A stretch of 64,000 bases of DNA from Candidatus Nitrosopumilus limneticus (GTDB lineage Archaea; Thermoproteota; Nitrososphaeria; Nitrososphaerales; Nitrosopumilaceae). Below, one piece after another: positions 34,352-37,133 of this stretch. Where the stretch lies: contig JAHCGZ010000002.1 in the NCBI GenBank assembly GCA_022117465.1, positions 186,001-250,000 of the forward strand, given 5' to 3'. Each line of letters opens with the position of its first letter. The stretch's first letter is position 1. Under the pieces are notes generated by a model. That model made no database searches. It was given only the letters and a program-made list of their open reading frames with translations, and was not told the DNA's origin. A program made the translations under genes and the position numbers.

Positions 34352-34872
34352 TAAATTTGATAGTTACATGTGCTAGAAATTTGGAAGGGGAAACAGAGGA
34401 TGAATTAATAGATATTTTAGATGAATTAGGGGATTCAGACGTCAAAATTTCAGTAAGTAATATGTCAGGAATAATTACAGTACAAACAAAATTAGATCCA
34501 ATTGACGTAGTTAGAAAAATGAAAAAAATGTTGTTAGATGAACCATGGAGTATTAGATATTGTTTAAGGGTAATACCAATTCAAAAAACAATTGAAACAA
34601 AAATAGATGAAATTGAAAAAATAATTTTAAGTATGTCAGATAAAATTGAAGAAAAAGAATCATATAAAATATTAATTGAAAAAAGAAATTCAGACATTTC
34701 AAGTAAAGAAATAATTACAAAAGTAGCAAATAAAATTAAAAATAAAGTCTCATTAGATTTTCCAGATAAAGTAATTTTAATTGAAATATTAGGAATAGTT
34801 ACAGGAATTTCAGTATTGAAAAATTCAGACATACTAAGTCTTGAGAAAACTAAACGTAGTATGTCAGATTAG
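34348..34872 (+). CDS. THUMP-domain protein, Tan1/THUMPD1-like
   Basis: A 174-residue protein with a THUMP RNA-binding domain and no catalytic domain: LIVTCARNLEGETEDELIDI, SNMSGIITVQTKLDPIDVVR, and ILIEKRNSDISSKEIITKVA with PDKVILIEILGIVTGISVL. This layout matches Tan1, the adaptor that delivers tRNA to the ac4C acetyltransferase. Known archaeal relatives bind tRNA. It is coupled to sua5 (ATGA overlap) and overlaps the convergent ubiquitin-fold/Cgi121 gene by 9 bases. Confidence 0.75.
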   Translation: MINLIVTCARNLEGETEDELIDILDELGDSDVKISVSNMSGIITVQTKLDPIDVVRKMKKMLLDEPWSIRYCLRVIPIQKTIETKIDEIEKIILSMSDKIEEKESYKILIEKRNSDISSKEIITKVANKIKNKVSLDFPDKVILIEILGIVTGISVLKNSDILSLEKTKRSMSD

Positions 34873-35637
34873 AATAGAAGCTTTTTCTACTAAAATATCT
34901 TCTAAAGGAGTTTCAGAATACACGGAATCAATATGCTTTTTTGAAATATTGAAATGTTTTTTTAAAAACAAATCATTATTTTTTAAAAATAAATTTATAC
35001 ATAAAGGAGATAATTCAGAATATAATAAATTAAAAGAGTTTTTATTTCCAATAGCAATTAAAATAAAATTAGTAAGAGGTTTTATTCCAACAGATGAAAT
35101 TGCATTAGAAATTTGTAAAGTCACTGCAAACCTCATTAGGATATCAGTTTCAATTTTATTTGAAAGTAAAATATTATTTTTTTCAGCTTCAATAGAGAGT
35201 GTTAAAATTTTTTTTAAATGAGATACGCTACAAATAAAATTACTAGATACCACTTGAAATTTAATTTTTGGGTATTTTATTCTCAAAGCATCAATAAATT
35301 TTACGTCAGTTGTTTTTTGACCACGAATTTCAATAATTTGAATAGATTTTTTATGAATTTCAAAAATTAATTTTTTAGATGAACCTCCATGGATTACAGG
35401 AATAACACTTACAATATCACCATCACGCACAATAGTATCTTTTCCATTCATCGCAGAAGAATCACAACCATTGATAGCAATTAAAATATTTTCAATATCA
35501 ATATCAGAAGTATTTACAGGTTTAATTTTTAATAATAATTCAAGTAATTGATTAATTGAAATATTAGAATTATCAATTTTTAATTCATCAGAATTAAAAG
35601 ATTTTCTGGCTCCACCAATTAATTTTATAGTTATCAT
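34864..35637 (-). CDS. Ubiquitin-fold (MoaD/ThiS-like) domain fused to a Cgi121-like domain
   Basis: A 257-residue two-part protein. Residues 1-88 look like a MoaD/ThiS/SAMP beta-grasp domain: MITIKLIGGARKSF, ILIAINGCDSSAMNGKDTIV, RDGDIVSVIPVIHGGSS, where an HGG sits at the position of the usual C-terminal GG but is followed by more protein. Residues 90-257 resemble Cgi121, the KEOPS subunit that holds the tRNA acceptor end (SVSHLKKILTLSIEAEKNN, ILMRFAVTLQISNAISSVGI, FILIAIGN). It lies next to sua5, so a t6A role is an inference. A simple ThiS-type sulphur carrier is the alternative. Confidence 0.62.
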   Translation of the reverse strand: MITIKLIGGARKSFNSDELKIDNSNISINQLLELLLKIKPVNTSDIDIENILIAINGCDSSAMNGKDTIVRDGDIVSVIPVIHGGSSKKLIFEIHKKSIQIIEIRGQKTTDVKFIDALRIKYPKIKFQVVSSNFICSVSHLKKILTLSIEAEKNNILLSNKIETDILMRFAVTLQISNAISSVGIKPLTNFILIAIGNKNSFNLLYSELSPLCINLFLKNNDLFLKKHFNISKKHIDSVYSETPLEDILVEKASILI

Positions 35638-35679: not shown

Positions 35680-36030
35680 TTATTCGGTTTTTTTATCATC
35701 TGATGTAGTTGAATGTAAAATAGATTCAATTTCTTCATTAGTTAGAGTAATTTCTTCATCATTTTCAGAGTCATCATCTAATTCGTCATGCTCTAATGAT
35801 GTTTCTTCAATATCAGAAGAATCGTAACTACTTTTATTTTGCTTAAATTCTTCTTCACGAATTTGTTTTTTTATGTATCGTGTGATATATCCTGCGATTT
35901 TATTTTTTAGTCCTTTAGAATGTATGATAGTAAGTTGATTTAGTACTATTTTGTTTTCAGCAAAGTCTTCACCAAATTTTGATTTATTTTCATCCATTAC
36001 TTCAAATGAGAGACGCTTTATTCTATCCAC
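35680..36030 (-). CDS. rps17e: 30S ribosomal protein S17e with long acidic tail
   Basis: Residues 1-60 match S17e: MDRIKRLSFEVMDENKSKFG, then ENKIVLNQLTIIHSKGLKNK and IAGYITRYIKK. The following 55 residues are Glu/Asp/Ser-rich (EHDELDDDSENDEEITLTNE) and have no equivalent in ordinary archaeal S17e of about 65 residues. The tail may serve in assembly or partner binding. It lies alone between the ubiquitin-fold gene and tatD. Confidence 0.82.
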   Translation of the reverse strand: MDRIKRLSFEVMDENKSKFGEDFAENKIVLNQLTIIHSKGLKNKIAGYITRYIKKQIREEEFKQNKSSYDSSDIEETSLEHDELDDDSENDEEITLTNEEIESILHSTTSDDKKTE

Positions 36031-36060: not shown

Positions 36061-36815
36061 CTATATTCCAAGAAAACGTTTTGTATTTTCTTCTAACAGT
36101 AATGACATTTCATCAAATGTTTTTTCTAGAATTTTAGAAGCACAAAAAATCACACTTGGAATAAAGCTGATCTGACCACATTTCATTTCAAAACATCGAG
36201 AAAATCTAACAGGTCCATCAGTTTCAACAAGAATTTTTGATTCACTAGTTTTAGACAATAAAATTTGTTTATCATTTGCATATATCATTACAGGTCCAAA
36301 AGATACAAAAAAATCCATATCCATTGCTTTTTGAAGTTGTTTTTTACTACCATCAAACCAATGCAATAAAGCATGTTTAGTATCATATGAAGTCATAATT
36401 TCAAAAATATCATCAAGACTTTTTCTGGAATGAATTGATACTGGTTTATGAAACTTTTCTGCAGATGAAAGTAATGATTCAAAACATGAATTTGCCTTTT
36501 AGTTTCATTATTATTTTTACAGTATGTAGGATCTAATCCAATTTCTCCAATACCTGAAATATTATTTTGATTTAATTCTATTAAATCATTAATTTTTTCA
36601 AGATCATCATTAGCAAATTCAGGATGAATTCCAATAAAAGGTAAAACTAGATTACTTTTTTTTGACAATAATAAAGTTTCTAATGAATTCTCGACATTCA
36701 TAGAAACACAACATGCTTTAATTTTAAGAGATTTCATTTGAGTTAGTATAAAATTAATTTCGGGAAGATATGCAGAATCTGATAAATGAATGTGAGAATC
36801 AAATGACCAAGACAT
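36061..36815 (-). pseudogene. tatD: TatD-family metal-dependent hydrolase split by a one-base frameshift
   Basis: The 5-prime part (36815 down to about 36485) encodes DSHIHLSD, GIHPEFANDD and IGEIGLDPTYCKN. The frame then breaks at AAAA (36481-36484 on the plus strand). Adding one base there continues as FESLLSSAEKFHKPVSIHSR, then LLHWFDG, ILVETDGPVRFSR and the C-terminus RFLGI, giving about 251 residues, the normal TatD length. All metal ligands (HxH, E, H, H, D) exist across the two frames. A sequencing error, a very recent mutation or slippage are all possible. A CTATATT box lies about 26 bases before the ATG. Confidence 0.8.
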
Positions 36816-36911: not shown

Positions 36912-37133
36912 ATGAAATCATCAGAGTTAGGACTATCTGCAATGTATAGAATCTTAAAAAAAGCAGGTGCAGAAAGAGTTAGTGATGAATCTGCAGACGA
37001 ATTACGAAGAGTGATAGAAGATATTGCTGATAATATTGCAAAAAATGCAGTCGACATGGCATCTCATGCAGGTAGAAAAACAGTCAAAGGAGAAGATATC
37101 AAATTGGCTTCAAAATCATTTAGTAAATTCTAA
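36912..37133 (+). CDS. Archaeal histone
   Basis: A 73-residue single histone fold: [40 protein letters not shown], then [20 protein letters not shown]. The [12 protein letters not shown] segment is the classic third-helix DNA-binding signature. It forms dimers and larger nucleoprotein chains that wrap DNA. The N-terminus is a few residues longer than HMfB and there is no tail. tRNA-Cys follows 40 bases downstream on the same strand. Confidence 0.93.

What the first reader, a model, noticed from the sequence alone, without database searches (positions are those of the whole stretch)
36061..36815. tatD is intact except for one missing base in an A4/T4 run
Adding one base at 36481-36484 restores a 251-residue TatD with all five metal ligands. 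The rest of the gene shows no decay. This is either a homopolymer error in the assembly, a very recent loss, or a slippage site that switches expression.
Basis: seen in the sequence. Interest (0 to 1): 0.5.

Follow-up and report, generated by a model that had tools for sequence, protein, structure and literature searches.

The report
Probable sequencing error in tatD
A DNA-repair-type enzyme gene in a marine ammonia-oxidising archaeon looks broken by one missing letter, but the same kind of one-letter gap also breaks genes the cell should need elsewhere in this genome, so it is most likely a sequencing or assembly error and not biology.

Summary
tatD (window 36061-36815, minus strand) is split into two ORFs by one missing base at 36480-36484. 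In the genus (named relatives are Nitrosopumilus), 81 of 95 genomes have a single-frame, near full-length TatD. The rest of the gene shows no decay: pairwise dN/dS window-relatives has median 0.107, against 0.142 among relatives. In 187 kb of the same contig I found five further single-base deletions relative to both reference genomes, all in or beside A runs, in four more genes: argG twice, DUF359 (GTP-dependent dephospho-CoA kinase-like, name recalled), pyruvoyl arginine decarboxylase and an ABC-type binding protein. argH is intact. Among 95 genus genomes only G000 shows argG, DUF359 or PvlArgDC split by a frame change. Residual consensus error is the simplest reading. A very recent real loss cannot be excluded without reads. 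A slippage switch is not supported: the run is four bases, the slot is not a T5 run in 17 of 29 relatives, and longer runs inside tatD keep frame.

The parts
36393..36815 (-). 5' part of tatD (residues 1-110 in frame, then 30 out-of-frame codons to a TGA)
   Evidence: ORF; Pfam PF01026 profile 1-117
36061..36483 (-). 3' part of tatD in the other frame (residues 112-251 and stop); its first ATG is at 36396
   Evidence: Pfam PF01026 profile 109-252; tblastn matches 36483-36064 from six relatives
36480..36484 (-). site of the one-base deletion (GTTTTG in the window, GTNTTTG in the 29 relatives aligned)
   Evidence: alignment; gap position; slot counts
36393..36396 (-). ATGA stop-start overlap of the two ORFs; the ATG is the Met141 codon, kept in the relatives printed, so the overlap is taken as incidental
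   Evidence: coordinates; protein alignment; residue number
35680..36030 (-). neighbour: ribosomal protein S17e
   Evidence: PF00833; tblastn hit in 58 of 60 tatD loci
36912..37133 (+). neighbour: 73-aa ORF, taken as an archaeal histone (name recalled, no family search run)
   Evidence: ORF; tblastn hit in 58 of 60 tatD loci

Best explanation
tatD is an ordinary, selected TatD-family gene in a Nitrosopumilus-like archaeon, and the missing base is most likely a residual indel error in the consensus sequence of this draft genome. Shown: the lesion is a single missing base, the gene is otherwise under purifying selection, and the same genome carries other one-base deletions at A runs, including two in argG. 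Inferred: that these are read or assembly errors. No reads were available and the sequencing method is not known to me.
For: (1) Six single-base deletions in five genes within 186,685 bases of contig C2, seen against both G013 and G003: tatD, argG twice, DUF359, PvlArgDC, ABC-type binding protein. (2) Three of these families searched in 95 genus genomes. argG: 83 genomes have the main match in one frame without stops, G000 is split, the other 11 have only a weak related match or none. DUF359: 89 match, 88 in one frame without stops (two of them partial), G000 split. PvlArgDC: 78 match, 77 without stops (G038 and G069 partial, G070 in two pieces on two contigs), G000 split by a frame change. 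(3) argH intact in G000 (461 bits); the only other argG-family match in G000 is a weak one of a kind many genomes have (28.3 bits). (4) Frame-split reference ORFs: 10 of 377 in four sampled G000 regions, against 1 of 369 for own ORFs in G003 after doubtful rows were dropped from the control only; Fisher p = 0.011. (5) tatD dN/dS window-relatives median 0.107 (12 pairs) versus 0.142 (66 relative pairs); 3' of the lesion 0.073 versus 0.087. (6) tatD is widely kept: 54 of 56 genomes at least 90% complete match. (7) Literature passages: long-read consensus sequences keep homopolymer indels that frameshift gene calls (PMC9262707; PMC8442456).
Against: The run at the tatD site is only four bases. 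Run-length spectra of G000 match relatives, so there is no gross homopolymer compression. In C1:60001-160000 no frame split was found in 82 reference ORFs, so the rate is low and uneven. Two of the other flagged genes, C3 about 41.2 and 52.3 kb, have several indels and lower identity and may be real decay or divergence. With the doubtful rows kept in the control it is 3 of 369 against 10 of 377. C2 alone gives 5 of 193 against 1 of 207, p = 0.11. Arginine taken up from outside could make argG loss bearable (inference). One 99%-complete genome, G039, has no tatD match, and a contig break does not fully explain it.
Confidence: 0.76

Rival explanations
1. A real, very recent one-base loss in this strain (fixed or a sub-population allele), so tatD is a fresh pseudogene.
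For: Gene intact except for one base; dN/dS not raised fits an event too recent to leave a trace. Genes with several indels in C3 suggest that some real decay occurs. G046 has a different tatD lesion and G039 no tatD match, so loss may be bearable.
Against: tatD matches in 54 of 56 good genus genomes. Needs an equal account for one-base losses in argG (twice) and DUF359 in the same genome.
Confidence: 0.19
2. The T4 site is a slippage or phase-variation site, or the frame is restored by transcriptional or ribosomal slippage as described for poly-A tracts in insect endosymbionts.
For: Low-GC genome (0.30); several genes broken only at A runs; Blochmannia genes with homopolymer frameshifts may be rescued by slippage (PMC3017870, passages).
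Against: The Blochmannia passages stress tracts of 9 or more bases in those genomes, and single-base insertion slippage rises exponentially with run length in E. coli and Buchnera (PMC5574713, passages); here the run is 4. The slot is not a T5 run in 17 of 29 relatives (GTATTT 11, GTCTTT 5, GTGTTT 1). Runs of 8 and 7 in the same gene keep frame. No X XXY YYZ heptamer at the site (read from the sequence).
Confidence: 0.03
3. A working split gene: two coupled ORFs with an ATGA overlap make two halves that assemble.
For: ORF1 stop and ORF2 ATG overlap as ATGA at 36393-36396.
Against: Residues 111-140 including H129 are lost or out of frame. The ATG is the Met141 codon present in the relatives printed, so the overlap can arise by chance from conserved sequence.
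Confidence: 0.01

Closest known systems
TatD-related metal-dependent DNase family (PF01026), Nitrosopumilus orthologues
   Same: Both halves match the family; place between S17e and the 73-aa ORF kept in most loci read; motif residues present
   Different: One base missing, so no single frame spans the protein
Homopolymer indel errors in long-read bacterial assemblies and MAGs (PMC9262707, PMC8442456, passages seen)
   Same: Single-base indels, mostly in or beside A/T runs, in genes regardless of need
   Different: Run here is short (4); sequencing method of this genome unknown; run-length spectrum normal
Frameshifted poly-A genes of Blochmannia, possibly rescued by slippage (PMC3017870, passages seen)
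   Same: AT-rich genome, otherwise intact genes with a one-base homopolymer indel
   Different: Those genomes are rich in tracts of 9 or more; tatD has a 4-base run, and this genus is mostly free-living (recalled)

Membership tests
TatD DNase family (PF01026) | Profile match over the full family length | tested here: met
   Two halves cover profile 1-117 and 109-252, each over the cut-off of 27 bits; not in one frame
TatD DNase family (PF01026) | HxH, E, H, H, D motif positions (roles recalled) | tested here: met
   H8, H10, E91, H129, H152, D200; stretches aligned to 6l25 and 3gg7
TatD DNase family (PF01026) | DNase activity | not testable with these tools
   No assay
Assembly or sequencing indel error | Other genes in the same assembly carry the same class of lesion, whether or not needed | tested here: met
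Assembly or sequencing indel error | Reads disagree with the consensus at the site | not testable with these tools
   No reads held
Pseudogene by decay | Raised dN/dS or further lesions | tested here: not met
   dN/dS 0.092-0.154 in 12 pairs; one frame-changing gap in tatD against G013
Slippage or phase-variation site | Long run kept as a run in relatives | tested here: not met
   Run of 4; slot is GTTTTT in 12 of 29 relatives

The most novel reading that the evidence does not exclude
The homopolymer frameshifts of this genome (tatD, argG twice, DUF359, PvlArgDC, ABC-type binding protein) are real, and this low-GC ammonia-oxidising archaeon tolerates them because its RNA polymerase or ribosome slips often enough at short A/T runs to make full-length protein.
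Probability: 0.03. Interest if true: 0.65.

Novelty: not a real feature. Interest (0 to 1): 0.07.

Why it matters
Mainly a caution: if the sampled rate holds (10 split genes in about 387 kb), this draft genome has some thirty frame-split genes in all (inference), so apparent loss of tatD, argG, DUF359 or PvlArgDC in it should not be read as biology.

Tried and rejected
Script error, rerun. The DNA-level indel census lists many false events from ORFs extended upstream of the real start, and its output was cut; I used it only for gap details and relied on the protein-level census. A split reported in G003 near 307998 (also seen) is my own artefact: base 308000 was left out where I joined two stretches. 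Ancestral reconstruction was not available. A search for archaeal TatD papers listed 15 of 41; none of the titles or abstract starts shown concerned Nitrosopumilus TatD. One search was a wasted dummy search. Stretches of C5-C8 (L133-L136) were fetched but not examined.

Rejected in part: absence of tatD in two good genomes as proof of dispensability. In G038 the contig ends inside S17e, so a break explains it. In G039 the contig ends about 135 bases past the ThiS-like gene, before S17e, but its tRNA-Cys lies on another contig with no histone, S17e or tatD match in the 3.6 kb before it, so there the gene order differs and real absence is possible. G046, also split, has a different lesion: a 29-base deletion relative to G050, in a contig that ends inside the gene.

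Full report
Observation. The two ORFs at 36393-36815 and 36061-36396 (minus strand) match the two halves of TatD_DNase PF01026. Aligned to 29 relatives, the window alone lacks one base at 36480-36484. With one unknown base the frame is 251 residues, with H8, H10, E91, H129, H152 and D200 in place. Which base was lost is not determined: the slot is GTTTTT in 8 and GTCTTT in 4 of the 12 closest relatives, so the loss may be from a T5 run or of a C.

Setting. The window lies at C2:186001-250000 of a 1.19 Mb, 8-contig, 95% complete genome. Relatives with names are Nitrosopumilus or Nitrosopumilaceae (8 loci). tatD sits between S17e and a divergent 73-aa ORF that I take to be the histone gene (recalled). 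Of 60 tatD loci read, 53 show S17e, histone and the downstream ThiS-like protein, 3 S17e and histone, 2 S17e and ThiS, 2 histone alone; some loci are cut by a contig end. These 60 loci hold some genomes twice, and one is the window's own locus.

Conservation. In 95 genus genomes, 85 have a TatD match over the cut-off; 81 of these are single-frame and nearly full length, G025 and G078 are partial, and G000 and G046 are split. Among 56 genomes at least 90% complete with at most 5% contamination, 54 match, the split G000 and G046 included; G038 and G039 do not. In G038 the contig ends inside S17e; in G039 it ends past the ThiS-like gene, but the tRNA-Cys on another contig has no tatD beside it, so real absence there is possible. 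The split in G046 is a 29-base deletion relative to G050, in a GC-rich genome, on a contig that ends inside the gene. In G000 the only other PF01026 match is a 19.7-bit match below the cut-off to a 468-aa frame, so there is no evident backup.

Selection. Pairwise Nei-Gojobori dN/dS between the window's tatD and 12 relatives is 0.092-0.154, median 0.107; among the 66 pairs of relatives the median is 0.142. Split at the lesion, the medians are 0.155 (5') and 0.073 (3') for the window and 0.224 and 0.087 for relatives. Singletons of the window are 3 nonsynonymous and 8 synonymous. So nothing shows relaxed constraint; pairwise values cannot date a loss at the very tip.

Is the genome otherwise clean? 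No. In C2:66001-252685 (186,685 bases) five genes carry frame changes by single-base deletions against both G013 and G003: tatD, a 341-aa ABC-type binding protein, a 164-aa DUF359 protein, a 183-aa pyruvoyl arginine decarboxylase, and argG with two deletions about 95 bases apart. The five deletions outside tatD lie in or beside A runs (alignments). The name of the ABC protein is recalled; argG, DUF359 and PvlArgDC are borne out by the Pfam searches that return split matches at those places. Inside the 64 kb window, tatD was the only gene split between frames when ORFs of six relatives were compared; rows of that call with in-frame stops were set aside as shadow ORFs without one-by-one proof.

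Genus control. argG: 83 of 95 genomes have the main match in one frame without stops (one partial at a contig edge), G000 is split, and the other 11 show only a weak related match or none; the list of weak matches in that call was cut. DUF359: 89 genomes match, 88 in one frame without stops (G008 and G010 partial), G000 split. PvlArgDC: 78 match, 77 without stops (G038 and G069 partial, G070 in two pieces on two contigs), G000 split by a frame change. argH is intact in G000. I judge a strain with intact argH and argG broken twice within 100 bases less likely than a locally poor consensus.

Census. Over four regions of G000 (C1 100 kb, C2 187 kb, C3 60 kb, C4 40 kb), 10 of 377 ORFs of G003 with a homologue are split between frames: C1 0 of 82, C2 5 of 193, C3 4 of 65, C4 1 of 37. 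Of the ten, one (87 aa, C3) is split near its start and doubtful, and two (336 aa and 155 aa, C3) have several indels and lower identity, so may be real decay. ORFs of G013 in G000 C2: 8 of 191 flagged, of which 4 are tatD, ABC, PvlArgDC and DUF359 and 4 are splits near the N-terminus that I take as start-site extensions. Controls, all: G000 ORFs in G003, 7 of 369 (4 are G000's own truncated ORFs, 2 are N-terminal extensions, 1 is an apparent split in G003); G000 ORFs in G013, 4 of 191 (3 own truncated ORFs, 1 a split 194-aa gene in G013); G003 ORFs in G013, 1 of 207 (the same 194-aa gene); G013 ORFs in G003, 2 of 205 (one at my own join, one an N-terminal extension); G013 ORFs in G060 0 of 49, in G089 0 of 37, in G017 1 of 56. 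Fisher 10 of 377 versus 1 of 369 gives p = 0.011, with doubtful rows dropped from the control only; C2 alone, 5 of 193 versus 1 of 207, gives p = 0.11. So the excess is modest and uneven between contigs. The A/T run-length spectrum of G000 matches relatives, which speaks against a crude, unpolished long-read consensus and fits a low residual error rate.

Verdict. Residual consensus error is the best explanation (0.76). A genuine very recent mutation comes next (0.19). Slippage-controlled expression is improbable: the run is four bases, the slot is not a T5 run in 17 of 29 relatives, longer runs in tatD keep frame, the Blochmannia passages stress tracts of nine or more (PMC3017870), and insertion slippage rises exponentially with run length (PMC5574713). 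A split but working enzyme is improbable because ORF2 starts at Met141 and lacks H129. Papers: PMC9262707, PMC8442456, PMC3017870 and PMC5574713 were seen as passages only; the others as search listings only.

Noticed in passing
G000:C2 near 153.08 and 153.18 kb (L093): argG carries two single-base deletions about 95 bases apart, both in A runs, while argH is intact elsewhere in the genome.
   Followed up: yes
G000:C2 near 93.22, 119.07 and 152.08 kb: PvlArgDC, DUF359 and an ABC-type binding protein are each broken by one base in or beside an A run.
   Followed up: yes
window 34864-35637 (-): One 257-aa ORF matches ThiS (residues 5-85) and CGI-121 (residues 121-199): an apparent ubiquitin-like/Cgi121 fusion (KEOPS link recalled). 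The whole ORF as query hits 55 of 60 tatD loci, and aligns over all 257 residues in G038 and G039.
   Followed up: partly
G000:C3 40.7-41.7 kb (L141): A 336-aa gene of G003 is 55-63% identical here with several frame-changing indels: what real decay may look like in this genome.
   Followed up: no
G000:C3 24.4-24.5 kb (L140): A 411-aa gene of G003 has two one-base deletions about 80 bases apart here, both in runs.
   Followed up: no
G046:C89 (L107): tatD of a GC-rich genome placed in the same genus has a 29-base deletion relative to G050, on a contig that ends inside the gene.
   Followed up: partly
G039:C57 (L165): In this 99%-complete genome the tRNA-Cys is not preceded by histone, S17e or tatD as in the window, and no TatD match was found in the genome.
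   Followed up: partly
G013:C10 near 18431: A 194-aa gene is split in G013 but whole in G000 and G003, so other drafts also carry isolated frame splits.
   Followed up: no
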